Shown piece by piece: positions 8,207 to 53,988 of a stretch of 64,000 nt of DNA. The stretch lies in contig JAITVV010000018.1 in NCBI GenBank assembly GCA_031285625.1, positions 25,488 through 89,487 on the forward strand, written 5' to 3'. The notes under the pieces are model-generated. The model searched no databases. It was given only the letters and a program-made list of their open reading frames with translations, and was not told where the DNA came from. The DNA is from Prevotella sp. (lineage in GTDB: Bacteria; Bacteroidota; Bacteroidia; Bacteroidales; Dysgonomonadaceae). How positions within the stretch are numbered: the stretch's first letter is position 1; every line of letters starts with the position of its first letter. The position numbers and the translations under genes were made by a program.

Positions 8207-8962
8207 ATGAAAAATTTACAAAATAAAATAGTTTTTATCACAGGAGGAGCTAATGGTATCGGCAAAGCGATAGTAAAAGCTTTCTGTGAAGCCGGGGCAG
8301 ATGTTACATTTTGCGATATGGACGAAATTGCAGGACAGCAATTAAAAGATGAAATGAGATCTTATAAATGTTCATTTGTTCATCTCGATGTTATCGATGC
8401 AGGAGCTTTAACCAATACTGTCAATACTATTCTTTCAGAGAAAGGTAATATCGATATTCTGATCAATAATGTAGGCGTAGGTAATTTTGGTTCTATACTG
8501 GATGTATCTGTTGAGGAATTTGATAAGACGCTGGAAATAAATCTGCGGCCTGTATTCATTACGGCTAAATTATTAGCGAAACATCGTTCATTGTATAAAG
8601 ATTTGAATTCATATGGACGTATTATCAACATGTCATCTACCCGCTACCTAATGAGTGAGCCCGATACAGAGGCTTATGCTGCATCTAAAGGAGCAGTTGT
8701 ATCCCTTACTCATGCATTGGCTGTTTCTTTGAGTAGATATAATATTACGGTGAATTGTATCAGTCCGGGCTGGATAGATACAGGACATTATGGAGAACTA
8801 AGGCCTATAGACCACAATCAGCATCCATCCGGAAGGGTCGGACGTCCGGAAGATATCGCCGGAACATGCCTCTTTTTGTGTGATCCTGCCAATGACTTTA
8901 TCAATGGGCAAAATATTGTGGTCGATGGCGGTATGACTAAAAAAATGATATATGTAGAATAA
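8207..8962 (+). CDS. SDR family NAD(P)-dependent oxidoreductase
   Basis: 251 residues, classical short-chain dehydrogenase length. The cofactor motif is TGGANGIGKA (residues 12-21), then NNVGVGNFG, the catalytic serine in NMSSTRY and the YAASKGAVVS tyrosine-lysine pair near residue 156. The C-terminus has PEDIAGTCLFLCDP and GQNIVVDGGM. The D at the end of beta-2 (FCDMDE) suggests NAD(H) preference. Substrate is not predictable. It has no obvious partner genes; the next gene starts 35 bases downstream. Confidence 0.92.
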   Translation: MKNLQNKIVFITGGANGIGKAIVKAFCEAGADVTFCDMDEIAGQQLKDEMRSYKCSFVHLDVIDAGALTNTVNTILSEKGNIDILINNVGVGNFGSILDVSVEEFDKTLEINLRPVFITAKLLAKHRSLYKDLNSYGRIINMSSTRYLMSEPDTEAYAASKGAVVSLTHALAVSLSRYNITVNCISPGWIDTGHYGELRPIDHNQHPSGRVGRPEDIAGTCLFLCDPANDFINGQNIVVDGGMTKKMIYVE

Positions 8963-8997
8963 TTTGCTATCTTTATGTGACTAAAAACCTGATCACT

Positions 8998-10212
8998 ATG
9001 AAAGGCCTGAATTTTATTCTGCTGATGCTATTTGCAGTTTCAATGCAAATTTCAGCTTGTACTACAGCTATTATCTCAGGAAAATGTACTGCAGATGGGC
9101 GTCCTTTGCTTTATAAGCACAGGGATACCGGGGCTTTGCAAAATAAGCTGATGACATTCACGGATGGCAAATATAATTACATTGGCCTTGTTAATAGTAA
9201 TGATAAAGTTGGAAAGGAAGTTTGGGGAGGTTATAACTCTTCCGGCTTTGCAATTATGAATTCAGCATCTTATAATTTGAATAATACAGAAGCCGGACCT
9301 GAAGAGCGTGAAGGAATTGTTATGAAACAGGCTTTGCAACAATGCGCTACTCTTGCCGATTTTGAAAAAATGCTGGAAACTTTACCTAAACCGCTTTATG
9401 TAAATGCTAATTTTGGAGTGATTGACGCTAATGGAGGCGCAGCTTATTATGAAACAGGCGATTATGAATTCAAAAAGTTTGATGCAAATGACCCTTCTGT
9501 TGCCCCTATGGGATACATTGTTCGTACAAATTTTTCTTTTTCCGGAGAACGTGCCAGAGATAAAGGGTTGAGCCGTTATCAGGCAGCAGAACCTTTATTT
9601 TATAGTGCCTCATTGACGGGTACTCTCTCTTATCGCTTTTTGTTACAGGAGGTATCCAGGCATTTGGTACACGGACTCACTGGTGCAAATCTGTATGATG
9701 CGACCCCTCAAGACAGTCATAAACCTGTTTTTGTAGCATTCAGGGATTATATACCCCGTTATTCTACATCTTCTGTTATTGTTGTGCAGGGCGTGAAGGA
9801 TAAAGAACCTGCCTCTCTAACTTCTATGTGGACGATACTAGGTTCTCCGCTTACAACACCTGCTGTGCCGGTATGGCTGAATAAAGATAATATTTACCCT
9901 TCTGTTCTATTTGCTAATGAAACTGGGAATGCTAAAATTTGTAACTGGTCACTGGACTTGAAGAAACGACTTTTCCCCATAACAAGAGGGGAAGGGAATG
10001 ATTATATAAATATGGCAGCACTTATCTCTGCCGATGGGAATGGTATTCTGCAAAAATTGAGACCTATAGAGGACCGTATACTTCATAACTCAGATATTTT
10101 GTATGACATTATGCGTAAGGGAGGCTATAACCCCTCAAAGCAAAAAGAGTTTTGCGATTGGGTAGATCAATTCGTAACGGAATCCTACAATCAGATATTT
10201 TCAATAAATTGA
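8998..10212 (+). CDS. secreted Ntn-type linear amide C-N hydrolase (C45/choloylglycine-like)
   Basis: The ATG at 8998 opens a signal peptide (MKGLNFILLMLFAVSMQISA); a GTG at 8977 would only lengthen the leader. Cleavage would expose Cys in ACTTAIISGK as the N-terminal nucleophile, followed by GRPLLYKHRDTG and VNSNDK. This fits the Ntn hydrolase superfamily of penicillin V acylases, bile salt hydrolases and related C45 peptidases. About 404 residues. Substrate is unknown; the export signal means it acts in the periplasm or outside. Bile salt hydrolase activity should not be assumed. Confidence 0.8.
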   Translation: MKGLNFILLMLFAVSMQISACTTAIISGKCTADGRPLLYKHRDTGALQNKLMTFTDGKYNYIGLVNSNDKVGKEVWGGYNSSGFAIMNSASYNLNNTEAGPEEREGIVMKQALQQCATLADFEKMLETLPKPLYVNANFGVIDANGGAAYYETGDYEFKKFDANDPSVAPMGYIVRTNFSFSGERARDKGLSRYQAAEPLFYSASLTGTLSYRFLLQEVSRHLVHGLTGANLYDATPQDSHKPVFVAFRDYIPRYSTSSVIVVQGVKDKEPASLTSMWTILGSPLTTPAVPVWLNKDNIYPSVLFANETGNAKICNWSLDLKKRLFPITRGEGNDYINMAALISADGNGILQKLRPIEDRILHNSDILYDIMRKGGYNPSKQKEFCDWVDQFVTESYNQIFSIN

Positions 10213-10293
10213 ATTACATTTATCTATATATAAGTATCTTAGTCAAAAAAAACAATAAAAGAAAGTGACATCACAAAACAATGTAAAAACTAT

Positions 10294-10301
10294 TACTTTT
10301 G
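10294..10301 (+). promoter_or_regulatory. -7 element of the dihydrolipoyl dehydrogenase gene
   Basis: TACTTTTG matches TAnnTTTG, about 110 bases before the ATG at 10411. It is embedded in a TTACTTTTGTaacCTTTGTCAC stretch that resembles sequences near 59.15 and 63.85 kb. Confidence 0.45.
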
Positions 10302-10410
10302 TAACCTTTGTCACCTTTTAACAGTTTATATATTTATTATAAACAAAATATCGATTTTGCAACAGTGTTAACTTTTGCAGATAATATTAACGATTAAATA
10401 TAAATTGAAT

Positions 10411-11766
10411 ATGATTTTATACGATGTTGCCATTATTGGCGGAGGGCCGGCTGGCTATACAGCAGCAGAGAGAGCTTCTGCAAATGGACTAAAAACTATA
10501 CTCTTCGAAAAGAATGCTTTGGGTGGTGTTTGTTTAAATGAAGGTTGTATTCCAACCAAAACACTTTTATATTCAGCTAAAACACTTGATAATATAAAAA
10601 ATTCCACAAAATATGGAATTACCGTAGAAGGTCAGCCCGCATTCGATCTGGGAAAGATAATCGCACGCAAACAAAAAACTGTACGTAAGTTAGTGGCAGG
10701 TATAAAGCAAAAACTGGCAGCTCATGATGTAACCGTTATTAGTGGTGAAGCAGCTATTGAAGGTGAGGACGGAGAACGGAATGTACTGATCTCTTGTAAT
10801 GGAGAAACTATCACAGCCGCCAAGGTATTGTTGTGTACCGGTTCCGAAACGGTTATTCCTCCTATTAAAGGATTAGATGAATCAGGGTATTGGACATCAA
10901 AGGAAGCCTTAGATAACAAGGAAGTGCCCGAGTCTTTAGCTATTATTGGCGGTGGTGTTATTGGTGTAGAGTTTGCTTCTTTCTTCAATAGTTTAGGCTC
11001 TAGGGTAACAGTAATAGAAATGTTGCCGGAAATACTAGGGGTAATGGATAAAGAATTATCTGCCATGCTTCGTGCTGAATATACAAAGAAAGGGATCGAA
11101 TTCCATTTAGATACCAAAGTTGTTGAAATCCGGAACGATCAAATTATAATAGAGAAAGATGGAGAACAATCATGTGTTCAGACTGCTCAGATACTACTCA
11201 GTACCGGACGCCGTCCTATCACGGCAAATCTTAATCTTGACAGGCTCGATATCGAGATGTTCAGAAATGGTGTAAAGGTAGACGAATGGATGAAAACATC
11301 GCATCCTAATGTATATGCATGCGGAGATATAACAGGTCATTCCCTGTTGGCACACACAGCTGTGCGTGAAGGCGAAGTTGCTATCAATCATATCTTAGAT
11401 AGGATTGATCATATGAACTATCAGGCTATCCCCGGAGTTGTATATACTAATCCTGAAATTGCCGGAGTAGGACAAACGGAAGAGGAGCTTACAGCAAAAG
11501 GTGAAAGATTTAGTGTACTTAAATTACCAATGGCGTATTCGGGACGCTTTGTCGCTGAAAACGAGCTCGGAAACGGTGTTTGCAAGCTAATTATCAGCGA
11601 AAATAAGAAAATAATAGGCTGCCATATGCTGGGAAATCCTGCATCTGAATTGATTGTTATTGCGGGTATTGCCATTGAGAAAAGTTTTACTGTTGAAGAG
11701 TTCCAAAAGATAGTCTTTCCGCATCCTACAGTAGGTGAAATCATTCATGAGGCATTGTTCTCCTAA
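10411..11766 (+). CDS. lpd: dihydrolipoyl dehydrogenase
   Basis: Start at the ATG at 10411 (MILYDVAIIGGGPAGYTAAE); the longer frame from a TTG at 10375 adds only an unlikely 12-residue extension. About 451 residues. FAD-binding GGGPAGYTA, redox-active disulfide GGVCLNEGCIPTK (Cys pair), NAD-binding GGGVIGVEFAS and the C-terminal HPTVGEIIHEA base motif are all present. It reoxidises dihydrolipoamide in 2-oxoacid dehydrogenase or glycine cleavage complexes. No E1/E2 genes are adjacent, so its complex cannot be told. Confidence 0.95.
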   Translation: MILYDVAIIGGGPAGYTAAERASANGLKTILFEKNALGGVCLNEGCIPTKTLLYSAKTLDNIKNSTKYGITVEGQPAFDLGKIIARKQKTVRKLVAGIKQKLAAHDVTVISGEAAIEGEDGERNVLISCNGETITAAKVLLCTGSETVIPPIKGLDESGYWTSKEALDNKEVPESLAIIGGGVIGVEFASFFNSLGSRVTVIEMLPEILGVMDKELSAMLRAEYTKKGIEFHLDTKVVEIRNDQIIIEKDGEQSCVQTAQILLSTGRRPITANLNLDRLDIEMFRNGVKVDEWMKTSHPNVYACGDITGHSLLAHTAVREGEVAINHILDRIDHMNYQAIPGVVYTNPEIAGVGQTEEELTAKGERFSVLKLPMAYSGRFVAENELGNGVCKLIISENKKIIGCHMLGNPASELIVIAGIAIEKSFTVEEFQKIVFPHPTVGEIIHEALFS

Positions 11767-37152: not shown

Positions 37153-40100
37153 TTAGAAAACAATACTTGCACCAAAAGAAAAATTACGGGCAAACGGATA
37201 AGATATGATAGATGGTTGTTCAATTCCGTCTCCTCTTATTCCTATATCTTCAGGGTCCCAGCCTTTAGGTGCATTATGTATCTCAAATAGGTCTTCAGCA
37301 CTGAAATATACTCTTATCTTCTCCAATTTAATTTTCTCAGTATATCTTTTTGGTATTGTATAACCAACCTGTAGATTTTTCATGCGTATATAAGCTACAT
37401 TATGTTTTGTGTTGGTTGAGTATTGATAGTTGTAATTTCGCTTATCCTTACTTGTTATGGCTGGATACTTGGCATCCGTTCTTTCTGCTGTCCATGTTTT
37501 ACCATACCAGTATTCGGAAGACTGATACCATGGCTGAGGGAAAGGCATTCTGGCTTCACCTTCCAGGAACATAGTACGGCGGCCTACTCCCTGAAAGAAA
37601 GCTCCCAGGTCGATTCCTTTATATTCGATATTCAGATTCAAACCGAATGTATAGCGTGGATTCAAGTCTCCTAAATATTTAACGTCTCCACTACCAGCTT
37701 CACCGTTACCTAGTGTTGTCAACTTTCCGTCTCCATCAAGGTCCTTATATTTAGCATCTCCTACAGCTAAGTCTCCCGGAATACCTCCGTTTTTGAAATG
37801 TGCTTTGTATTCTTGCAGTTCCTGTTCTGTTTGGATGATTCCATCAAACTCATACCCAAAATATGAATTTAGAGGATAACCTTTGGGTGAGTCATTTAAA
37901 CCTAATTGAATCAATTGATCCCCTGCTCTTTCTACCATTTCGTTTTTAGCATCACTTAAGCTACCTCTTACCGAGTAACTGACATTTCCAATGCGGTCTC
38001 TCCAACCTATTGCTACTTCCCAACCATTGATTTTTAAATGGCCGTCATTGGTTGTAGGAGGATCGATCCCAAGCATTTTAGGATAAGATTTCAGGATGAG
38101 CATATTCTTATTTTCTTTCCAGAAATAATCGAAAGATCCATATAGTCTGTTATTCAATATGCTGAAATCCAATCCGATATCTGTTGTGTGGATAGTTTCC
38201 CATGTGCGTTCGGTAGAAACCAGATTCTTTGCTTTGTACATTTGACCTTTCAGTCCGTTTCCGAATGGGTAATAAACGTCTTTTCCTCCCGATCTGTTGA
38301 TCGCCATAAATGCTATGTAGTCGTAATAAGCATTTCCAAGCTGGTTACCCATTTCTCCATATGAAGCCCTTAATTTTAGATCATCAAAAATGTTCAGATT
38401 CTTCATAAGTTGTTCTTCGCCTAAGCGCCAGGCAACACTTACTCCCGGGAACCAGCCCCAGCGATGTCCTTTAGCATATCGAGAGCTACCATCGGCACGT
38501 AGCGTACCTTCGATAAGGTATTTGTTGGCAAATGCATAATTCACTCTGGAAAAGAAAGAATTGATTGTCCATGCATAACCCGTTCCGTTAGCTTCCTGAT
38601 TGTCGGTACTTCCCAGATTGATAGACATCAAATCCTGTTGATCAAAATTTATTCGCTTAGCCGAAAAGAAGTCATAATTGGCCGATTCGTGAGCACCACC
38701 GGCCATCAAACCGATTTCGTGTTTGTCTGCAAACGTCTTCTTGTATTCTCCATATAGGGTGAAGTTTTTAGAAGTTGTTTTAGCATAATTACGTTCAACA
38801 CTATTAGGTGTTCTTTTTATTCTGTGATTTACATCTTCCCAGTTATAAATCGGAGTATATTTATTGATAATATTTTTATCAGCATCACTCTTACGAACTA
38901 TGGCACGTCCTATGATGTTTAATCCATCTATTACTTGCCAGATTAGTGAGTTATTGAATGTAAAACTTCCGGTTGTATGAGTAGATTCACCACCTTCTTC
39001 CATTACCTGTGCCGGATTGTCAAATCCTTCGAATGCATAAAATCTTCCGGCAGGATTATACATAGGTGTCCAGCTGCGTGTCTTGTATATTATTTCCCAT
39101 ATATTTTGTCCTTCGCTGATGGCTGAAGAGTATTTTCTGTCACTAGCTTCATATGACAGGTTAATATCATAACTTAAATTGCTAAGTATTTGTATATTGG
39201 ATTTTGCACGTACAAAATATCGTTTGTCATTATCAACGCCATATTTTAGCAAGCCATCTTCTGATTGATAACCAAGAGATATCAGGTATGAGTACTTTTC
39301 ACCTCCTCCAGAAAAACTGACATTATAGTTCTGTATAGCTCCGTTCCCAATCATCATATCACTCCAGTCTTGATTTTTGTAGAATTTAGGATATCCTGAC
39401 CAACGCCCCCAATCAGAGGAAGGAATTACCTTGTCGCTGCCTTGGGCGATAAGAGGTAATTCGTCTCTGGTATATTCTACAGGGAAAGAACCATCAGTGA
39501 TTTCCAATGCCATTTCTGCATGTTGGTACAGACTGGCAGGTTTTTTGATTAATGCAGGTTTTTTGATAGAGTAGTATGCATCAAGTGTAACCCTAAGTTT
39601 TTGATTTTTACGGCCACTCTTTGTTGTAACCAGAATTACGCCATCGGCAGCACGTGCTCCATAGATAGCTGCTGTACCATCCTTTAAGACAGAGATGCTT
39701 TCTATATCAGCAGAATTAATCATGTTTATATCTCCTTCTGCTCCGTCAATTAATACTAATGGTATCCCTCCGTTCAGGGAAGAAACATCGCGTACCCTGA
39801 TCGTGGCACTGCTACCTGGTGCACCTCCATTACGGATAATAGTAAGGCCTGGAACTTCACCCTGTAATGCATTGGCTGTATTAAGAACAGGACGTGATTG
39901 GAATACTTTGGAGTCAGCAGTAGATACAGCTCCGGCAAGATTAGCCCTTTTTACTGTACTATAACCAATAACAACAACTTCGTCCATTTCGCGTATTTCT
40001 TCTTTCAAGACTATATTTATTGTTTTTAGGGAGCCAACTACAGCTTCTTCTTTCGAAAATCCAATGAAAGAGAAAACGAGTACAGTCTCTTTATTCGGAA

Positions 40101-40644
40101 CATTTATTGAATATGCTCCATCCATGTCTGTCATAGTCCCGATAGTTGTCCCTTTTATAATGACACTAACCCCTGACAAGGTTTCACCCGTCTCATCCTT
40201 TACCACACCAGATACTATGTTTTGTTGTTGGCTTATACTCAGGTTGTTGGTTGTTTCAGGTTTTTCTTTTTGAGTAAGGATAATATCTTTATCGAGTACT
40301 TTATATTCGACTCCGTGCCCGGTAAATATTTCATCTAATATAGAAAAAACTGTTCTTTTGGTAACTTTCACCGAAACAGTCCTGTCTACATCTACAAGTT
40401 TACTGTTATAGTAGAAGCGAAATTCCGATTGTTTTTCAATCTCATCCAGTACTTCAACCACTTTTTTGTTGTTGAAGGCAAGTGATAGTGTAGTTTCCTG
40501 TGCATAAGAATGGGCTGCAAAGCCAATATTGATGGACAGGATTAACATGAGTGATAGTAATTTCATAGTAAGAGGTATTTTATCCAGCTTAAGGAAATGG
40601 TAATAATAGCTCCAAGTGTGTTGGAGATGATGGATTTTTCTCAT
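37153..40644 (-). CDS. SusC/RagA TonB-dependent transporter with STN domain (PUL-B)
   Basis: 1163 residues. An unusually long N-terminus before the signal segment (TMKLLSLMLILSINIGFAAH) is followed by the STN domain (LSLAFNNKKVVEVLDEIEKQ), the beta sandwich (NIVSGVVKDETGETLSGVS), the plug (ANALQGEVPGLTIIRNGGAP, VLKDGTAAIYGARAADG) and the barrel ending in FARNFSFGASIVF. The signal sequence start could instead be the inner ATG (MKLLSLMLILS). Its STN domain pairs it with the FecR encoded upstream on the same strand. Confidence 0.97.
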   Translation of the reverse strand: MRKIHHLQHTWSYYYHFLKLDKIPLTMKLLSLMLILSINIGFAAHSYAQETTLSLAFNNKKVVEVLDEIEKQSEFRFYYNSKLVDVDRTVSVKVTKRTVFSILDEIFTGHGVEYKVLDKDIILTQKEKPETTNNLSISQQQNIVSGVVKDETGETLSGVSVIIKGTTIGTMTDMDGAYSINVPNKETVLVFSFIGFSKEEAVVGSLKTINIVLKEEIREMDEVVVIGYSTVKRANLAGAVSTADSKVFQSRPVLNTANALQGEVPGLTIIRNGGAPGSSATIRVRDVSSLNGGIPLVLIDGAEGDINMINSADIESISVLKDGTAAIYGARAADGVILVTTKSGRKNQKLRVTLDAYYSIKKPALIKKPASLYQHAEMALEITDGSFPVEYTRDELPLIAQGSDKVIPSSDWGRWSGYPKFYKNQDWSDMMIGNGAIQNYNVSFSGGGEKYSYLISLGYQSEDGLLKYGVDNDKRYFVRAKSNIQILSNLSYDINLSYEASDRKYSSAISEGQNIWEIIYKTRSWTPMYNPAGRFYAFEGFDNPAQVMEEGGESTHTTGSFTFNNSLIWQVIDGLNIIGRAIVRKSDADKNIINKYTPIYNWEDVNHRIKRTPNSVERNYAKTTSKNFTLYGEYKKTFADKHEIGLMAGGAHESANYDFFSAKRINFDQQDLMSINLGSTDNQEANGTGYAWTINSFFSRVNYAFANKYLIEGTLRADGSSRYAKGHRWGWFPGVSVAWRLGEEQLMKNLNIFDDLKLRASYGEMGNQLGNAYYDYIAFMAINRSGGKDVYYPFGNGLKGQMYKAKNLVSTERTWETIHTTDIGLDFSILNNRLYGSFDYFWKENKNMLILKSYPKMLGIDPPTTNDGHLKINGWEVAIGWRDRIGNVSYSVRGSLSDAKNEMVERAGDQLIQLGLNDSPKGYPLNSYFGYEFDGIIQTEQELQEYKAHFKNGGIPGDLAVGDAKYKDLDGDGKLTTLGNGEAGSGDVKYLGDLNPRYTFGLNLNIEYKGIDLGAFFQGVGRRTMFLEGEARMPFPQPWYQSSEYWYGKTWTAERTDAKYPAITSKDKRNYNYQYSTNTKHNVAYIRMKNLQVGYTIPKRYTEKIKLEKIRVYFSAEDLFEIHNAPKGWDPEDIGIRGDGIEQPSIISYPFARNFSFGASIVF

Positions 40645-42016: not shown

Positions 42017-42568
42017 ATGGACGACTTTTTACTACTACAAGGGATACAAGCGGGCGATTCTGAAGCTTACAAGGAGATGTTTTATAAATTTTATTCTCCT
42101 CTATGTGAGTTTGCTTCGCAATATCTATCTGATTCTGATGCAGAAGAATTGGTTCAGGATTTGATGTTGTATATATGGGAGTCGAGGACAGAACTAATGA
42201 TTGAGAGTTCTCTTAAATCTTATTTATTTGTTGCTGTAAAAAACAGATCTTTTAATGCCATACGAAATCAGCAATATAAGAAGAAAGTGCATTCTGTTTT
42301 GTATGAGAAACTCAAAGAGCAATTTGAAGATCCGGATTATTACATGATAGATGAATTAGCTACACGGATACAAAATGCTATCAGGGAATTGCCAGATAGC
42401 TATAGGGAAACTTTTGAGTTAAGCCGTTTTGGAGATATGACTAATGCACAGATTGCAGTGACCTTATCTGTATCCATAAAGACTGTGGAATATCGGATAA
42501 GCCAATCTCTAAAAATTCTTCGTTTCAAATTGAAAGATTACATAGCTTTGCTACCACTTTTGGCTTAG
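42017..42568 (+). CDS. ECF-type RNA polymerase sigma factor (probably PUL-B)
   Basis: 183 residues from ATG 42017 (MDDFLLLQGIQAGDSEAYKE). Region 2: FYSPLCEFASQYLSDSDAEE and LVQDLMLYIWESR; region 4: IRELPDSYRETFELSRFGDM then TNAQIAVTLSVSIKTVEYRI. Divergent from the PUL-B fecR across a 174-base spacer holding one promoter for each. The most likely partner is that FecR, because the next sigma gene downstream has its own fecR. Confidence 0.94.
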   Translation: MDDFLLLQGIQAGDSEAYKEMFYKFYSPLCEFASQYLSDSDAEELVQDLMLYIWESRTELMIESSLKSYLFVAVKNRSFNAIRNQQYKKKVHSVLYEKLKEQFEDPDYYMIDELATRIQNAIRELPDSYRETFELSRFGDMTNAQIAVTLSVSIKTVEYRISQSLKILRFKLKDYIALLPLLA

Positions 42569-42692
42569 AGCTGATTCGTATTCTTACCTAGCTAAGGTAA
42601 GAAATAATACAAGTTATTAGCAAATTATAATCCAACAATTATGAACTACAAACATATAATAAAATAATTTGCTCATTTTCTCTTATTACATA

Positions 42693-42710
42693 TATTTTTG
42701 AATATTTTTG
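42693..42710 (+). promoter_or_regulatory. tandem -7 elements before the PUL-C sigma gene
   Basis: Two TATTTTTG copies (42693-42700 and 42703-42710) fit TAnnTTTG; a TTTG at 42668-42671 gives a -33 box with 21-base spacing to the first. The sigma ATG follows at 42741. Confidence 0.5.
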
Positions 42711-42740
42711 TTTCAAATAAGTCTTACCTAATTTTAGGTT

Positions 42741-43316
42741 ATGGGATTGAATAACTCTGCGGTAATTGATCAATTATTTTGGAGAATAGCTCTAAAAGAT
42801 GATGAAGAAGCTTTTCGTTCTTTATTCTTCGAGTTCTTCTCTTCTTTATGTGTTTTTGCACATAGGTATGTTGAGGATTGGGATACTTGTGAAGACCTTG
42901 TGCAAGATACATTCTTTAAAATATGGAAGAACAGGAAGTCCATAGAAATAAATACCTCAAGCCGAAATTTTCTGATTACCAGTGTGCGAAATTCATGCAT
43001 TGATTATTTACGAAAGCAAGATTCTGCCCGAGCTTGGCAAGAAAAAGAGATAAAAGACAAAACAGAATACACATCTGATGATTTATACTCCCATATAGAG
43101 TTGGAGCAAATGTTAACCGCTGCACTATCCAAACTACCGGAGAATATAAGGGCGGTTTTTGAGATGAACAGGTTTGAAGGAAAAACATATAAAGAGATTG
43201 CAGAAGAAAAAAACATATCTGTGAAAACCGTGGAAGCTCATATGACAAAGGCACTTAAAGTGCTTAGAGTCGAACTAAAAGACTACCTGCCTTTAATAAT
43301 CCTTCTTCTCTGGTAA
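42741..43316 (+). CDS. ECF-type RNA polymerase sigma factor (PUL-C)
   Basis: 191 residues. Region 2: FFSSLCVFAHRYVEDWDTCE then DLVQDTFFKIWKNRKS; region 4: ALSKLPENIRAVFEMNRFEG then KTYKEIAEEKNISVKTVEAH. Followed 69 bases later by its fecR and then by the SusC-SusD fusion, the classical order. It should recognise the two closely similar TAGGGTAT...ATGCGTCTA sites at 43336 and 44420. Confidence 0.95.
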   Translation: MGLNNSAVIDQLFWRIALKDDEEAFRSLFFEFFSSLCVFAHRYVEDWDTCEDLVQDTFFKIWKNRKSIEINTSSRNFLITSVRNSCIDYLRKQDSARAWQEKEIKDKTEYTSDDLYSHIELEQMLTAALSKLPENIRAVFEMNRFEGKTYKEIAEEKNISVKTVEAHMTKALKVLRVELKDYLPLIILLLW

Positions 43317-43335
43317 AAAAATAAGTATTATCCTG

Positions 43336-43360
43336 TAGGGTATATTATATCTGATGCGTC
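43336..43360 (+). promoter_or_regulatory. candidate ECF-sigma promoter, PUL-C fecR
   Basis: TAGGG (43336-43340), 16 bases, CGTC (43357-43360). Extended identity with the site at 44420: both read TAGGGTAT and ATGCGTCTA. It lies 26-50 bases before the fecR GTG start. Confidence 0.65.
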
Positions 43361-43385
43361 TAGTAATTAAAATTAAGAAGAAACT

Positions 43386-44408
43386 GTGGATATTAATACC
43401 GAACATATAATAGCTTATCTGGAGAAAAGGTTACCTGAAAATGACCTGAAAGAATTTGAATATCAACTAGAAAATTCAGATGACTTTAGAAAAGAAGTCG
43501 AAGACATTGCCTTTGTATGGAGAACATCAGAGGAGTTGAAGCTACATGGCAAAATAGATACAGATGCTAACTGGAATCAGATTTCAAGAAGAATAAAGAA
43601 AGATAAATATAAAACAAAGCTTTTACGTTATAGCCGTTCAGCTGCTGCAATTCTGATACTACCGGTATTATTTCTTACTACTTTCTTATATATCGAACTA
43701 GATAATAAGAATAATCAACCGAAACAACAATTGCACGTTACATCTGCATACGGAACAGTTACAAAAACGGTACTTTCTGATGGTACTGAAGTCTGGTTGA
43801 ATTCAGGTTCAACGCTGAGCTATCCTCAAACTTTCACTAAAGGAGAACGTAACGTCATGCTTACAGGAGAAGCATACTTCAAAGTAAGCTCTGATAAATC
43901 GAACCGATTCAATGTTATTATATCTGATGAACTTATTGTAAGTGCATATGGTACGGAATTTAATATAAATTCTTACAAAGAAGATAATACTATAGATGTT
44001 ACTCTGATCGAAGGAAATATTCAGGTATCGAAAACAGACAAAACAGGTTCTAAGGATATAATACCAGGACAGCATATAACTTACAATAAGAATAGCAAGC
44101 TAATGGCTATGGCCGATGTCAATCTATCAGTAAAGACTGGATGGAAAGATGGAAAGATGATATTCCGCAGAGCCAATATGACAGAAGTCGTCCAACGCCT
44201 TTCTCGTCATTTTAATGTAGACATCCGACTAGAAGGGAAAGAACTATATGATTATGAATATTCTGCAACATTTACAACAGAGACCTTGAATGAGATATTA
44301 TTGTTACTTGAAAAAACGGCACCAATAAAATATTCTATAATTGAACCGGAACAGTCTGGTGATTATAGCTTCACAAAAAGAATAGTTAAGATAAGCCTTA
44401 AAAAATAA
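43386..44408 (+). CDS. FecR family anti-sigma factor (PUL-C)
   Basis: 340 residues, starting at GTG 43386 (MDINTEHIIAYLEKRLPEND); no in-frame ATG gives the full N-terminal domain. One membrane helix near residues 85-105 (SAAAILILPVLFLTTFLYIE), then FecR domain (KTVLSDGTEVWLNSGSTLSY, GEAYFKVSS, SAYGTEFNINSY) and C-terminal DUF4974 (VVQRLSRHFNVDIRLEG). Its receptor partner should be the downstream SusC, now reduced to the STN domain. Confidence 0.95.
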   Translation: MDINTEHIIAYLEKRLPENDLKEFEYQLENSDDFRKEVEDIAFVWRTSEELKLHGKIDTDANWNQISRRIKKDKYKTKLLRYSRSAAAILILPVLFLTTFLYIELDNKNNQPKQQLHVTSAYGTVTKTVLSDGTEVWLNSGSTLSYPQTFTKGERNVMLTGEAYFKVSSDKSNRFNVIISDELIVSAYGTEFNINSYKEDNTIDVTLIEGNIQVSKTDKTGSKDIIPGQHITYNKNSKLMAMADVNLSVKTGWKDGKMIFRRANMTEVVQRLSRHFNVDIRLEGKELYDYEYSATFTTETLNEILLLLEKTAPIKYSIIEPEQSGDYSFTKRIVKISLKK

Positions 44409-44419
44409 ATAAAAACTTA

Positions 44420-44445
44420 TAGGGTATTTCCCAACTGGATGCGTC
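44420..44445 (+). promoter_or_regulatory. candidate ECF-sigma promoter, PUL-C susC fusion gene
   Basis: TAGGG (44420-44424), 17 bases, CGTC (44442-44445), directly after the fecR stop and about 205 bases before the fusion gene ATG. The long leader it defines contains two hairpins. Confidence 0.65.
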
Positions 44446-44521
44446 TATCCTATAAATGCAGTTTATACTATGAATTACTAACATTAAAATCACTACTATG
44501 GAAGAAAGTATTTAAAAAGAA

Positions 44522-44606
44522 TACGGGAAAAATGCAAGTTACATTTCTCCCGTAAATTATCAAATCAATATTACCAATCCGAAAATCTCACCTGACGAAT
44601 GGTAAT
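44522..44606 (+). promoter_or_regulatory. two leader hairpins before the PUL-C SusC-SusD fusion gene
   Basis: Hairpin 1: TACGGGA-aa-AATG (44522-44534) with CATT-tc-TCCCGTA (44542-44554). Hairpin 2: ATTACCA (44570-44576) with TGGTAAT (44600-44606). Hairpin 1 resembles those in the other two SusC leaders; position is 46-130 bases before the start codon. Confidence 0.55.
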
Positions 44607-44651
44607 AAGATTAAGTCGTTAACAACCTAATTAATTTGACGAAGTAAAATT

Positions 44652-45380
44652 ATGAAGAATTTACTTAACAAAAAAGGTAATAGGCTATATTTTAGTCTGC
44701 TATCAAAAATCCCCATCTCTATGAGAATCGCAGTAATTTTATTATTTGGAATAATATTCCATGCAGGGGCTTCTAATATTTATTCACAAACAGCCTCAGT
44801 TTCCTTAAATCTAAAAAATACGACGGTAGAAAAGGTCTTGAATACGATAGAGGAAAACTCAGAGTTTTATTTCCTGTACAACAGTAAGCTAGTTGATGTA
44901 GACAGAAAAGTAAATATTGATGTGAAGAATCAATCTATAGAATCTGTATTGAAATCTTTGTTCGGATCAACAGATGTTTATTACAAAGTTGAAGGGAAAC
45001 AAATTATTCTGTCAAATAAGACGATCTCTTCACTGGATACTCAAAAGACTCTTCAACAAAATATTAAAAAAATTACAGGTGTAGTAAGAGAAGTTAATAA
45101 GGAACCCGTGGTTGGTGAAGGCTTCCGCTGGAACGATATTGTTAGATGGAAAGCCGGAAAATTGATAGAGAACATGAAAACTGTATATGGTTTGCGTGTT
45201 ACAGATGAACTGAAGAATAAATACGAATCATTTACACGTGAACTGACAGATGATAAATTATTGATTGCATATCCAAATGTTGCACCTCGTAAATGGAATG
45301 ACAAATTATACCTGCGTCCATTGCCTATCGAAGAACTTGCAATTAATACAAATCTGACTCAAAATCCGGGATGGGAATAA
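44652..45380 (+). CDS. in-frame SusC N-terminus / SusD C-terminus deletion fusion (PUL-C)
   Basis: 242 residues in one open frame. Residues 1-155 are a SusC N-terminus: signal segment (about 25-50), complete STN domain (VSLNLKNTTVEKVLNTIEEN ... VEGKQIILSNK) and the first strand of the regulatory-like domain (ITGVVREVNKEPVVG). From residue 156 the sequence is a SusD C-terminus: EGFRWNDIVRWKAGKLIENM and LYLRPLPIEELAINTNLTQN with final PGWE. The SusC plug and barrel and most of SusD are missing, roughly 4 kb by comparison with the other loci here. Junction near 45116-45121. The result cannot form a transporter. It is either a real deletion or an assembly join. Confidence 0.9.
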   Translation: MKNLLNKKGNRLYFSLLSKIPISMRIAVILLFGIIFHAGASNIYSQTASVSLNLKNTTVEKVLNTIEENSEFYFLYNSKLVDVDRKVNIDVKNQSIESVLKSLFGSTDVYYKVEGKQIILSNKTISSLDTQKTLQQNIKKITGVVREVNKEPVVGEGFRWNDIVRWKAGKLIENMKTVYGLRVTDELKNKYESFTRELTDDKLLIAYPNVAPRKWNDKLYLRPLPIEELAINTNLTQNPGWE

Positions 45381-45398
45381 CTTTAAAATGAAGAAATA

Positions 45399-46352
45399 AT
45401 GAAAAAAAATCTAATATATTTAATTACGGTTTTATTAGGAATCTGCATCTTGTATGGATGTAGCGATGACGACGGAGGTTCTGATATATATATTACCCAA
45501 GCAGGGAATCCGGTAAATGTAAAGTTTGTAATGAAAAATGATCCTTATATACAAACATTCACTGTATCAATGGTAAGTCCTTATCCGATACCGTCCTCAA
45601 GCGGAATTAACCATGATGTAAAAGTGTCTTTAGAGACAGATCCATCTAAAGTAGAGGTCTATAATTCAAAGGAAGGTACATCTTATAAGATAATGCCGGA
45701 AGGTAGTTACTCTTTTCCTTCAGAAGTCATTATTAATGCCGGCTCATATGTTTCGGAGAATATATCTTTATCTATAAATGCTAAAGGGAAAATTGAAGCA
45801 TTGGAAACATATATACTTCCTATCAGTATAAAAGCTGTAGAAGGAGCCAATACTGATAATTCACACCAAACTATTTATTTTTTGCTGACAGGCTCTATAG
45901 ATGCCAGTGATATGGTATTTCTTAGCCGGACCGGCTGGCAAGTAATCGATGTGTCATCTGAAGAACTGAATGGTGAAGGTGCAAATAATGGTGCGGCGAA
46001 ATATGCTTTTGACGGAGATGGCCAAACATTCTGGCATACACAATGGCAGGGAGGAGAACCTATGCCTCCTCACCATATTACGGTAGATATGGGTAAGGAA
46101 GTAGAACTGCAAGGTTTTTCTTACTTAACTCGTGATTTCGGTGGAGCATGGCCTAAAGAATGTACTATTGAAGTAAGCAAGGATAATGCAGGATGGGAAG
46201 TTGCTGCTAATTTTACAGGCCTGCCTGCTTCCGGAGCCACCGAGTTTCGTTCGTTCTTCCCTGATGCTGTAGAAGCGAGATATTTCAAAATGACAATTAC
46301 TGCGGGGTATGGTGGTGCCTCCACACATGTAGCCGAAATCAATGTGTTCTAA
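45399..46352 (+). CDS. SusE/F-position lipoprotein with DUF1735-like and discoidin domains (PUL-C)
   Basis: 317 residues. Lipobox ILYGC, then an acidic linker (SDDDGGSD) typical of surface-exported Bacteroidetes lipoproteins. The N-terminal half (about 30-165) resembles DUF1735 beta domains; the C-terminal half (about 180-317) is an F5/8 type C discoidin domain (AKYAFDGDGQTFWHTQWQGG, HHITVDMGKEVELQGFSYL, ARYFKMTITAGYGG). A surface glycan-binding protein by position after SusD and domain content. Confidence 0.85.
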   Translation: MKKNLIYLITVLLGICILYGCSDDDGGSDIYITQAGNPVNVKFVMKNDPYIQTFTVSMVSPYPIPSSSGINHDVKVSLETDPSKVEVYNSKEGTSYKIMPEGSYSFPSEVIINAGSYVSENISLSINAKGKIEALETYILPISIKAVEGANTDNSHQTIYFLLTGSIDASDMVFLSRTGWQVIDVSSEELNGEGANNGAAKYAFDGDGQTFWHTQWQGGEPMPPHHITVDMGKEVELQGFSYLTRDFGGAWPKECTIEVSKDNAGWEVAANFTGLPASGATEFRSFFPDAVEARYFKMTITAGYGGASTHVAEINVF

Positions 46353-46366
46353 TTAAATAATTTAAT

Positions 46367-46394
46367 TGAGGATTGACTAGAATATCAATCCTCA
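46367..46394 (+). promoter_or_regulatory. intercistronic hairpin, SusE-like gene to GH29
   Basis: TGAGGATTGA and TCAATCCTCA form a perfect 10-bp stem with an 8-base loop in the 66-base gap; GTTTAG follows. Likely processing or attenuation element. Confidence 0.7.
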
Positions 46395-46424
46395 GTTTAG
46401 AAAATCATATTAATAATTTTGAAA

Positions 46425-47876
46425 ATGAAAAATAAAAAAATCATATTTACTCTATTCTCTCTATTCATTTCATTAAATACTTTTTCTCAAGCACCCAAAC
46501 CAATCGGTCCGACCCCAAACGAAAGGCAGATAGATTGGTATAACCAAGAAATAATAGCCTTTTTCCATTTTGGGCTGAATACCTATGAAGAATTTGTAAA
46601 CGAAGGTGATGGCAGGACTACCACTTCTCTTTTCAATCCCACAGCACTTGATTGTAAACAATGGGCACGAACATTAAAAGCCGCTGGAATCTCTAATGGC
46701 ATACTGACAGCCAAACATGCCGATGGTTTTTGTCTTTGGCCAAGTGCTTATACAGATTATTGTGTAAAGAACAGTCCGTGGAAAGGAGGTAAAGGTGATG
46801 TGGTCAAAGAGTTTGCTGATGCATTCAATAGCTTGGGAGTAAGAGCCAGTGTTTACCTAGGCCCTCACGACCGGCACGAACATCTGTCGCCGTTATATAA
46901 TACAACTGACTATAGGGATTACTATGCTCATCAGCTGACTGAACTCTTATCTAACTATGGCCCGATGTGGGAAACATGGTGGGATGGAGCAGGAGCCGAC
47001 GAGCTTACGACTCCTATTTACACTAAATGGGCGGAGATTGTTCGCAGGCTTCAACCTCAATGCGTCATTTTCGGGACAAAGAATTCATATCGTTTTGCAG
47101 ATGTTCGCTGGAATGGTAATGAAACCGGAATTGCCGGAGATCCATGTTGGTCTACAATTGACTCTTTATCTATCAGGGACGAAGGTGCCCATATCAAAGA
47201 TCTGAACGAAGGACAACTTAACGGGAATGCCTATATCCCTGCAGAATCTGACGTATCTATCCGTCCAAGCTGGTTTTATCATTCAGAGGAAGATGTTATG
47301 GTAAAATCGGTAGAAGAACTATGGGATATCTATTGTAAATCGGTAGGACGCAACAGTGTGTTGCTATTAAATCTTCCTCCGGATAGAAGAGGACTTATCC
47401 ATCCTATAGATTCGGCAAATATAGTAGGACTGCGTAAAGCAATTGATGAAACATTCCGTGCGAATCTGTTGGAAGATGCAAAAGTAACAGCAAAGAATCC
47501 TCGTGGAGGTGAATATGCCGTAACTAATATGATTGATAAATCGCCGGATACATATTATGCAGCCAATGATAATGCCACGACTGATGAAATAGTGTTTGAA
47601 ATGAACTCATCCAAGACATTTGACTGTCTGATGATTCAGGAGGTGATTGCCTTAGGGCACCGTACAACCGGATGGTCTGTAGATTATTCAAATGATGGTA
47701 AAAAATGGACTACTATCCCCCAAGCTAAAGATAAACAAAGCATAGGACATAAGTGGATACTAAGATTCTCTCCGGTTACTGCAAAATATGTAAGACTGCG
47801 TATTACAAAAGGTAAGGCATGCCCAGCCATTCATACTTTTGGTGTATACAAACAGTCTGTATTAGTAAGTAAATAA
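46425..47876 (+). CDS. GH29 alpha-L-fucosidase with C-terminal discoidin domain (PUL-C)
   Basis: About 483 residues from ATG 46425 (an upstream TTG adds two). Signal peptide, then the GH29 barrel: IDWYNQEIIAFFHFGLNTYE, AKHADGFCLWPSAYTDYCV, the nucleophile Asp in MWETWWDGAGADE near residue 190, and NSVLLLNLPPDRRGLI. The C-terminal 130 residues are a discoidin-like carbohydrate-binding domain. Removes alpha-linked fucose; subfamily (linkage) not decidable here. Second enzyme-side gene in PUL-C. Confidence 0.95.
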   Translation: MKNKKIIFTLFSLFISLNTFSQAPKPIGPTPNERQIDWYNQEIIAFFHFGLNTYEEFVNEGDGRTTTSLFNPTALDCKQWARTLKAAGISNGILTAKHADGFCLWPSAYTDYCVKNSPWKGGKGDVVKEFADAFNSLGVRASVYLGPHDRHEHLSPLYNTTDYRDYYAHQLTELLSNYGPMWETWWDGAGADELTTPIYTKWAEIVRRLQPQCVIFGTKNSYRFADVRWNGNETGIAGDPCWSTIDSLSIRDEGAHIKDLNEGQLNGNAYIPAESDVSIRPSWFYHSEEDVMVKSVEELWDIYCKSVGRNSVLLLNLPPDRRGLIHPIDSANIVGLRKAIDETFRANLLEDAKVTAKNPRGGEYAVTNMIDKSPDTYYAANDNATTDEIVFEMNSSKTFDCLMIQEVIALGHRTTGWSVDYSNDGKKWTTIPQAKDKQSIGHKWILRFSPVTAKYVRLRITKGKACPAIHTFGVYKQSVLVSK

Positions 47877-47893
47877 TTTCTAAAATTAAATAA

Positions 47894-51547
<3,654 letters not shown>

Positions 51548-51561
51548 ATAAAAACCTAACC

Positions 51562-51593
51562 ACAGGGAAATGGAAATTATTCCATCTCCCTGT
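51562..51593 (+). promoter_or_regulatory. intercistronic hairpin, GH2 to GH92
   Basis: ACAGGGA-a-ATGGAA pairs with TTCCAT-c-TCCCTGT around a 4-base loop (one mismatch), followed by ATTTAATATTAATT. Third consecutive PUL-C junction with a hairpin. Confidence 0.7.
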
Positions 51594-51609
51594 ATTTAAT
51601 ATTAATTCA

Positions 51610-53901
51610 ATGAAAAATATATATTTAGCGTTTCTTTTATTGCTGATGGTATCATGTCAGCCAAAAGAGGGAAATATACTAAATGAAGAAAAGAGTCCTG
51701 TGGATTATGTGAATATACTGATGGGTACACAATCCAAATTTACCTTATCCAATGGCAATACCTATCCTGCTATTGCCATGCCATGGGGTATGAATTTCTG
51801 GACACCGCAAACAGGGAAGATGGGTGACGGTTGGGCATATACTTATGATGCCGATAAGATAAGAGGATTCAAGCAAACGCATCAACCCAGTCCGTGGATG
51901 AACGATTACGGTCAGTTCGCTATTATGCCCATGACAGGGAAAGCCATTTTTGATCAGGATGAAAGAGCCAGCTGGTTTTCACATAAGGCGGAAACAGCAA
52001 AACCCTATTATTACAAGGTATATCTGGCCGATTATGATGTGATAACAGAGATTACGCCAACCGAACGGGCAGCCATGTTCCGCTTTACCTTTCCCGAAAA
52101 TGAAAAATCATATGTGGTAATTGATGCTTTTGACGAAGGATCATATGTAAAAATACTTCCGGATGAAAATAAGATTATCGGCTACACCACAAAAAACACA
52201 AAAGGAGTTCCAGATAATTTCAAAAACTATTTTGTAATAACTTTTGATAAGCCATTCGCTTATACGGCTTCTGTTGCAGGTGGCGTTATATCAGACGGGA
52301 AACCGGAAAGTGCAGACAAACATGCGGGAGCGGTTATCGGTTTTCCGACCCACAAAGGAGAAGTGGTGCATGCTAAAGTAGCTTCGTCGTTTATCAGCCA
52401 CGAACAGGCTGAAACCAATCTAAAAGAGATAGGTGAAAATACTTTTGAACAGATAAAAGAACAGGGCAGGAATAAATGGAATGAGGTATTAGGTAAGATT
52501 GTAGTTGAAGATGATAACATCGACAATGTAAGAACATTCTATTCCTGCCTTTATCGCTCTGTATTATTTCCCCGCAGCTTTTATGAAATTAATGACAAAG
52601 GAGAAACAGTACATTACAGTCCCTATAACGGAGAAGTCCTGCCCGGCTATATGTTTACCGATACAGGATTCTGGGATACATTCCGCTGTTTATTCCCATT
52701 GTTGAACCTGATGTATCCTGATATGAATGCGAAGATGCAGGAAGGATTGGTTAATACATATAAAGAAAGTAGTTTCCTTCCCGAATGGGCCAGCCCGGGG
52801 CATCGCTATTGCATGGTAGGAAATAACTCGGCATCGGTGGTTGCTGATGCTTATTTGAAAGGATTGAGAGGGTACGATATAGAAATGCTTTGGCAGGCTA
52901 TAATTCATGGGACAACTGCTGTCCACCCCGAAATGAAATCAACAGGTAGGTTGGGTTACGAGTATTATAACAAACTGGGGTATGTTCCCTATGATGTAAA
53001 TATTAATGAGAATGCAGCACGTACACTTGAGTATGCCTATGATGACTGGTGTATTTACCAGCTGGGAAAAGCTCTTGGAAAACCTGAAAAAGAAATAGAG
53101 ATTTATAAACAGAGGGCAATGAATTACAAAAACCTCTTCGACCCAGAGCATAAATTAATGAGAGGAAAGAATCAGGATGGGACATTCCAGTCTCCTTTCA
53201 ATCCACTGAGATGGGGAGATGCCTTTACCGAGGGCAACAGTTGGCATTACACTTGGTCGGTGTTTCATGATCCGCAGGGGTTAATTGACCTGATGGGAGG
53301 AAAAGACGGTTTTAACCAGATGATGGACTCAGTGTTTAATGTTCCGCCATTGTTCGACGAAAGTTATTACGGAGGAGTAATTCATGAAATACGGGAGATG
53401 CAGATAATGAATATGGGACAGTATGCACATGGCAATCAACCTGTACAACATATGATTTACCTATATAATTATTCAGGCGAACCATGGAAAGCCCAGTATT
53501 GGGTACGTGAGGTAATGGATAGGCTATATACTCCTAATCCGGATGGTTATTGTGGTGATGAGGATAATGGCCAGACTTCGGCCTGGTATGTGTTCTCTGC
53601 ACTTGGCTTCTATCCTGTTTGTCCGGGAACGGATCAGTATATTTTAGGTTCTCCTTTGTTTAAGAAAGTTACTTTAAAACTGGAGAATGGAAAAGAGATA
53701 GCTATCAGTGCAGATAATGTGAGTGTAGACAACAGGTATATCGAGGCGATGACCATCAATGGTAAATCCTCTTCCCGTAATTATATAACACATCCGGAGT
53801 TAATGAATAGTGGTGAAATCAATTTTAAAATGGCCTCATCGCCAAATGAAAAACGTGGGACAGACAAAGTGGATTTACCCTATTCGTTCTCACAAAAGTA
53901 A
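51610..53901 (+). CDS. GH92 exo-alpha-mannosidase lipoprotein (PUL-C)
   Basis: 763 residues. Lipobox MVSC at residue 16. The GH92 fold shows as PVDYVNILMGTQ, NGNTYPAIAMPWGMNFWTPQ, FKQTHQPSPWMNDYGQFAIM, FYSCLYRSVLFPRSF, DTGFWDTFRCLFPLLNLMYP and CGDEDNGQTSAWYVFSALGF with FYPVCPGTDQY. GH92 enzymes are calcium-dependent mannosidases acting mostly on alpha-1,2/1,3/1,4/1,6-linked mannose of N-glycans or yeast mannan. With GH29 and GH2 it suggests host-type glycoprotein glycans. Last gene of PUL-C. Confidence 0.96.
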   Translation: MKNIYLAFLLLLMVSCQPKEGNILNEEKSPVDYVNILMGTQSKFTLSNGNTYPAIAMPWGMNFWTPQTGKMGDGWAYTYDADKIRGFKQTHQPSPWMNDYGQFAIMPMTGKAIFDQDERASWFSHKAETAKPYYYKVYLADYDVITEITPTERAAMFRFTFPENEKSYVVIDAFDEGSYVKILPDENKIIGYTTKNTKGVPDNFKNYFVITFDKPFAYTASVAGGVISDGKPESADKHAGAVIGFPTHKGEVVHAKVASSFISHEQAETNLKEIGENTFEQIKEQGRNKWNEVLGKIVVEDDNIDNVRTFYSCLYRSVLFPRSFYEINDKGETVHYSPYNGEVLPGYMFTDTGFWDTFRCLFPLLNLMYPDMNAKMQEGLVNTYKESSFLPEWASPGHRYCMVGNNSASVVADAYLKGLRGYDIEMLWQAIIHGTTAVHPEMKSTGRLGYEYYNKLGYVPYDVNINENAARTLEYAYDDWCIYQLGKALGKPEKEIEIYKQRAMNYKNLFDPEHKLMRGKNQDGTFQSPFNPLRWGDAFTEGNSWHYTWSVFHDPQGLIDLMGGKDGFNQMMDSVFNVPPLFDESYYGGVIHEIREMQIMNMGQYAHGNQPVQHMIYLYNYSGEPWKAQYWVREVMDRLYTPNPDGYCGDEDNGQTSAWYVFSALGFYPVCPGTDQYILGSPLFKKVTLKLENGKEIAISADNVSVDNRYIEAMTINGKSSSRNYITHPELMNSGEINFKMASSPNEKRGTDKVDLPYSFSQK

Positions 53902-53988
53902 ATTACTACTTCATGCCTTTATCCTATTTACTAGTTAGATAATGATGTGTTTTAGTAATGATCTAGTAATGATTTGTAGATAATTTAA

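What the first reader, a model, noticed from the sequence alone, without database searches (positions are those of the whole stretch)
44652..45380. SusC and SusD collapsed into one in-frame 242-residue protein
The ORF keeps a SusC signal segment and complete STN signalling domain (residues 1-155) and then switches at about 45116-45121 to the last ~87 residues of a SusD. The plug, barrel and most of SusD are gone (about 4 kb by comparison with PUL-A and PUL-B), yet the frame is intact, and the sigma, FecR, ECF promoters, SusE-like lipoprotein and three glycoside hydrolases around it look intact. If real, PUL-C encodes enzymes without its importer, but keeps the domain that talks to FecR. The product could be a truncated signalling protein or just a deletion scar. 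An assembly join between repeats is the main alternative.
Basis: partly seen in the sequence, partly recalled or inferred. Interest (0 to 1): 0.75.

Follow-up and report, generated by a model that had tools for sequence, protein, structure and literature searches.

The report
Importer gene pair deleted into stub
In this Dysgonomonas-type bacterium a deletion seems to have welded the start of a sugar-importer gene to the end of its partner gene, removing the importer but leaving a readable small protein that keeps only the importer's signalling piece, which may hold the neighbouring sugar-digesting genes switched off.

Summary
ORF 44652-45380 (242 aa) carries a complete STN domain (res. 74-122) and then the last ~88 residues of a SusD (Pfam res. 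154-241). A same-genus relative, Dysgonomonas sp. 521, has the same locus, colinear over 42555-53913, with an intact 1162-aa SusC and 557-aa SusD. The difference is one in-frame loss of 4446 bp. The join lies at 45107-45117, where SusC and SusD could share at most about 9 bp (inferred). The missing DNA was not found elsewhere in the 96-contig assembly. A repeat-driven assembly join is unlikely; a chimera cannot be excluded without reads. Sigma factor, FecR, promoter-like sites, lipoprotein and three hydrolases remain. Both halves look about as conserved as their neighbours, so the event is probably recent and selection on the fusion is unshown.

Most likely: a recent deletion that removed the PUL's importer. 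If stable, the stub resembles the exported signalling domains that protect the anti-sigma factor and block induction in Pseudomonas, so a locked-off PUL is predicted. No other SusC-SusD fusion appears in the listed rows for 60 relatives or for 392 other genomes of the order (lists cut).

The parts
42741..43316 (+). ECF sigma factor (TIGR02985, Sig70_bacteroi1), 191 aa
   Evidence: 92% aa identity to Dysgonomonas sp. 521
43338..43360 (+). promoter-like element GGGTAT-N12-GCGTC upstream of fecR
   Evidence: 2 in window, mean 0.05 expected; pattern fitted to the sites; also in the relative; function inferred
43386..44408 (+). FecR-type anti-sigma factor, 340 aa, FecR (PF04773) and FecR_C (PF16344)
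   Evidence: 88% aa identity to relative
44422..44445 (+). promoter-like element GGGTAT-N13-GCGTC upstream of the fused gene
   Evidence: function inferred
44652..45380 (+). susC-susD deletion fusion ORF, 242 aa
44652..45106 (+). part from susC: export segment, STN domain (res. 74-122) and linker to the lost NTE domain
   Evidence: 93% aa identity to SusC of Dysgonomonas sp. 521; export inferred
45107..45117 (+). deletion junction; up to 9 bp (45109-45117) could be shared by both ends; 4446 bp lost, in frame
45114..45380 (+). part from susD: last ~88 residues
   Evidence: 94% aa identity to SusD of the relative
45399..46352 (+). lipoprotein with BT_3987-like_N and F5/8 type C domains
   Evidence: lipoprotein by reading the N-terminus
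46419..47876 (+). alpha-L-fucosidase family enzyme (GH29-type) with F5/8 type C domain
47939..51547 (+). GH2 beta-galactosidase-like enzyme with ricin-type lectin domain
51610..53901 (+). GH92 family enzyme

Best explanation
A recent in-frame deletion of 4446 bp, probably by slippage or illegitimate recombination across a repeat of at most about 9 bp, removed the NTE, TonB box, plug and barrel of SusC and all but the last ~88 residues of SusD. Shown by sequence: fusion, intact orthologue in a relative, in-frame loss, lost DNA not found elsewhere in the assembly, neighbours present. Inferred: the product is exported by the SusC signal peptide and the STN domain folds alone in the periplasm, while the SusD tail is a passenger, probably unfolded or trimmed. 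With no barrel to pass on a substrate signal, the free STN can only sit on its FecR and protect it from proteolysis, as overproduced signalling domains do in Pseudomonas. The sigma factor then stays bound, and the operon with the lipoprotein and three hydrolases stays at basal level. The locus is a disabled PUL, not a new importer; the stub may have no selected role.
For: Domains. Colinear orthologue with whole SusC and SusD in Dysgonomonas sp. 521. Junction register and 4446 = 3 x 1482. Lost DNA not found elsewhere in G000. Of 40 SusC genes taken by homology, 39 distinct at this site, 39 of 39 have V (27) or A (12) after the G; of 7 SusD sequences that reach the site, 7 have E-L before it; this caps exact sharing at about 9 bp. 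In the relative the longest shared word within 100 bp of the two breakpoints is 8 bp and off register. NG86 dN/dS of the STN part 0.052 and SusD part 0.058 against 0.037-0.090 for five neighbours. Free signalling domain blocks induction: passages on Fec (PMC9249621) and on Pseudomonas Fox and Iut (PMC11637429).
Against: One draft assembly only; no reads. No second genome with this junction was found, so it may not be fixed in the species. By YN00 the STN part has the highest dN/dS of the seven stretches compared (0.112, five neighbours 0.038-0.094), which could hint at slight relaxation or be noise. The structure tool was off, so folding of the stub is untested. The signalling experiments are from proteobacterial iron systems with the domain overproduced; the passage seen for SusC says only that STN domains take part in anti-sigma signalling.
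Confidence: 0.62

Rival explanations
1. The deletion is real but biologically inert: the fused protein is degraded or never made, and the PUL is simply decaying.
For: Only one genome shows it; ~88 residues of a SusD cannot form the SusD fold (established knowledge of the family, not tested). Other damaged STN-bearing SusC genes occur in genomes of the order (L089, L092, L097), though some may be sequencing error. An in-frame join needs about 1 chance in 3; of 31 shared 9-mers between susC and susD of the relative, 15 are in frame.
Against: Start, export segment, STN domain and frame are all kept, and the seven stretches compared show no clear decay; a recent inert event would look the same.
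Confidence: 0.25
2. Assembly or library artefact: the genome really has an intact susC-susD pair and the 4.4 kb was skipped by a chimeric molecule or a collapsed graph path.
For: Draft genome, 96 contigs, 94.25% complete, 3.85% contamination, so the lost DNA could be unassembled; the locus was seen in no second assembly of the species; a 30-base junction pattern was not found in viral contigs, a collection where it was hardly to be expected.
Against: No shared word long enough for a k-mer join; no orphan contig with the lost DNA; the join is clean and in frame.
Confidence: 0.13

Closest known systems
SusC/SusD pair of an ECF sigma/FecR-linked PUL (Dysgonomonas sp. 521, NZ_QVMO01000053.1)
   Same: Same gene order with sigma, FecR, promoter-like sites, lipoprotein and hydrolases; aligned blocks 80-90% identical in DNA
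   Different: There SusC is 1162 aa and SusD 557 aa; here 4446 bp are gone and the remnants form one 242-aa frame
Overproduced free signalling domain of FoxA/FecA-type transducers (laboratory constructs; passages of PMC11637429 and PMC9249621)
   Same: Export signal plus signalling domain, no plug or barrel; anti-sigma partner present
   Different: Made naturally by deletion, with an extra SusD tail; the full-length receptor is absent; effect not tested
Bt1763-type SusC without STN (passages of PMC7782687)
   Same: SusC family; the relative's intact SusC has the same NTE, plug and barrel plan
   Different: The stub lacks NTE, TonB box, plug and barrel but keeps an STN

Membership tests
SusC/RagA TonB-linked outer membrane protein (TIGR04056) | NTE, plug and beta-barrel matching TIGR04056 | tested here: not met
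   Fusion: 0 NCBIfam families at E 0.001; intact relative 954 bits. Fusion has no Plug, barrel or CarbopepD hit at E 0.001
STN signalling domain (PF07660) | Near full-length STN match above the gathering score | tested here: met
   58.4 bits against a cut-off of 28.4, profile 3-51 of 52
SusD/RagB (PF07980) | Whole family domain with its own start | tested here: not met
   Only profile 222-297 of 297 is present; the N-terminus is that of SusC
Cell-surface signalling system (TonB transducer + FecR + ECF sigma) | FecR-type anti-sigma and ECF sigma beside the receptor gene | tested here: met
Cell-surface signalling system (TonB transducer + FecR + ECF sigma) | Full-length transducing receptor at the locus | tested here: not met
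   none orphaned elsewhere
Cell-surface signalling system (TonB transducer + FecR + ECF sigma) | Physical contact of the STN stub with FecR | not testable with these tools

The most novel reading that the evidence does not exclude
The stub is a functional, naturally evolved free STN that acts as an inducer-blind brake on its FecR, and perhaps on paralogous FecR proteins, so that the cell has converted a sensing importer into a dedicated periplasmic regulator of the remaining hydrolase operon.
Probability: 0.12. Interest if true: 0.65.

Novelty: new variant of a known kind. Interest (0 to 1): 0.38.

Why it matters
If real, the strain is a ready-made experiment: a PUL with sigma, FecR, promoter-like sites and enzymes kept but a receptor reduced to its signalling domain. 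It separates importing from signalling in Bacteroidota and asks whether the newer proteobacterial model (the signalling domain protects the anti-sigma factor when no signal is present; PMC11637429) also holds for glycan systems. If only a scar, it is an example of how a PUL can lose its importer in one step.

Tried and rejected
Second copy or orphan contig holding the lost DNA: the own genome was searched with L052:5700-10300 (4601 bp; 40 of 81 first-look candidates scored). Of 23 listed places the best two are the two sides of the junction itself (71 bp at 92%, 80 bp at 80%); the other 21 are 38-264 bp at 66-87%. Rejected, within the limits of an assembly that is 94.25% complete.

Recurrent SusC-SusD fusion: the fusion protein was searched in 61 genomes (own plus 60 relatives) and in 393 of the order (own included). 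No listed row other than the own one covers both halves in one frame. Limits: both lists were cut, and one search scored at most 7 candidates per genome. The 14 other listed hits with an open frame under 700 aa were fetched. Ten of 14 run off a contig end, judged from hit place, frame length and contig length, so their far ends are unknown. The other four were read: L089 and L097 are split over frames, L091 meets an N gap, L092 has a stop by its row. No fusion is seen in any. The 19 loci show none by their listed matched residues.

Junction residues: my first count (24 of 24 SusC, 8 of 8 SusD) used patterns that already limited the allowed residues, so it is not an independent test and I do not rest on it. 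It was redone on SusC genes chosen by homology; one search failed because minus-strand loci were not turned, one search is the valid one.

Selection on the fusion: dN/dS cannot separate selection from a recent event; NG86 and YN00 disagree on the STN part (0.052, 0.112). GH92 was not included.

Solved structures: no PDB chain matched the fusion at E 0.01. The first promoter pattern had the wrong spacing and gave nothing; it was corrected after reading the two sites, so only its recurrence in the relative is independent. SusC-SusD fusions in print: one search gave one paper, on Tannerella beta-glucanases (listing only); this does not show absence. No paper of the library holds the term Dysgonomonas sp. 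521.

Full report
What was checked. The ORF at 44652-45380 exists and is 242 aa. Pfam finds STN (res. 74-122, 58.4 bits) and the last part of SusD_RagB (res. 154-241, profile 222-297 of 297); FecR_C also matches the STN region at 23.9 bits, just under its cut-off of 24.4. The window lies in a 4.84 Mb assembly of 96 contigs, 94.25% complete and 3.85% contaminated, and the ORF DNA gives one match in it.

Orthologue. Of the 25 genus genomes (own included), 8 had any match; G018 matched closely (87-90%), and G009 and G011 matched at 68% over fecR and the STN part. G009 and G011 have SusC-like frames of 1125 and 1123 aa followed by SusD-like frames of 538 and 531 aa and other downstream genes (read from the ORF lists). 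In G018, SusC is 1162 aa (L052:5327-8815) with STN, NTE, plug and barrel, and SusD is 557 aa (8828-10501). The window aligns to it in order over 42555-45106, 45109-46379 and 46385-53913.

Junction. In register, window bases up to 45106 follow SusC (NKEP) and from 45109 follow SusD (VGEGFRW). The loss is 4446 bp, a multiple of three. Of 40 SusC genes chosen by homology, 39 distinct at this site, 39 of 39 have V or A after the G where the window has E, so SusC can match the window only to 45117. In 7 of 7 SusD sequences that reach the site (six rows of the alignment and Dysgonomonas sp. 521), E-L stands where the window has P-V, so SusD can match only from 45109. The exact shared stretch is then at most 9 bp; its true length is unknown because the species' own intact allele was not available. 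In the relative, random susC/susD breakpoints share 9 bp or more in about 3.5 of 100,000 draws, so if all 9 bp were shared, the repeat probably helped.

Artefact test. k-mer joins need a shared word well above 9 bp (assembler practice, recalled). The longest exact word shared within 100 bp of the two breakpoints in the relative is 8 bp and off register; in the relative's susC-susD stretch no word of 14 repeats, and one of 12 does. The missing DNA was not found in other contigs. A chimeric molecule, a minority strain chosen by the assembler, or lost DNA in the unassembled 6% remain possible; no reads were available.

Age and selection. dN/dS against the relative, NG86 / YN00: sigma 0.068 / 0.094, FecR 0.090 / 0.090, STN part 0.052 / 0.112, SusD part 0.058 / 0.066, lipoprotein 0.068 / 0.052, GH29 0.037 / 0.038, GH2 0.063 / 0.085. 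Both halves look broadly like their neighbours, so most of the divergence was probably gathered while the genes were whole. This suggests a recent deletion and says nothing firm about a role now.

Regulation. Two copies of GGGTAT-N12/13-GCGTC stand upstream of fecR (43338) and of the fused gene (44422), with a mean of 0.05 expected in shuffles, and both are in the relative. The first spacing tried gave none. That they are ECF promoters is inferred.

Mechanism. The stub keeps the export segment and STN but no NTE, TonB box, plug or barrel, so it should neither import nor sense through TonB. In passages that I read, overproduced signalling domains of several Pseudomonas transducers, carrying their own signal sequences, inhibited signalling, and those of FoxA and IutA inhibited the proteolysis of FoxR and IutY (PMC11637429); the review states that a surplus of separately made FecA signalling domain in the periplasm inhibits fecA induction (PMC9249621). 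SusC proteins of ECF-controlled PULs carry STN domains said to act in anti-sigma signalling (PMC7782687). In Bacteroides thetaiotaomicron, loss of the PUL24 anti-sigma factor raised the transporter transcript 50-fold on glucose (PMC11501099 passages), so keeping FecR stable should keep a PUL low. The prediction is a locked-off PUL. This is inference: in those experiments the domain was overproduced, the full receptor was also present, and if the 44422 site is controlled by this sigma factor the stub would keep its own level low too.

A point against print: PMC7782687 (passage) says that the NTE precedes the STN in all cases; in the relative's SusC and in the window's 37153-40644 SusC, Pfam puts STN first (74-122, 79-125) and the carboxypeptidase-like NTE second (141-221, 144-225).

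Verdict. A real-looking, probably recent, in-frame deletion that removed an importer pair and left a natural free-STN gene; likely a scar with a possible off-lock effect. A repeat-join artefact is unlikely; a chimera is not excluded.

Noticed in passing
window 42555-53913; L052 3229-18985 and L103 1-321: PUL-C is a block shared with Dysgonomonas sp. 521 whose upstream neighbours differ: ABC-transporter-like genes there (by reading), PUL-B's sigma and FecR here. Similarity stops just before the sigma gene and just after the GH92 gene, which suggests that the PUL moves as a module.
   Followed up: partly
window 37153-40644 (STN 79-125, NTE 144-225); L052 5327-8815: STN precedes the carboxypeptidase-like NTE in these SusC proteins, opposite to the order stated in a passage of PMC7782687.
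   Followed up: partly
L092 3408-5605; L089 2311-5590; L097 2-2958: Other broken STN-bearing SusC genes in genomes of the order: one with a stop (L092), two split over frames (L089, L097); sequencing error not excluded.
   Followed up: partly
window 46379-46385; L052 11500-11691: About 190 bp extra in the relative between the lipoprotein and the fucosidase genes.
   Followed up: no
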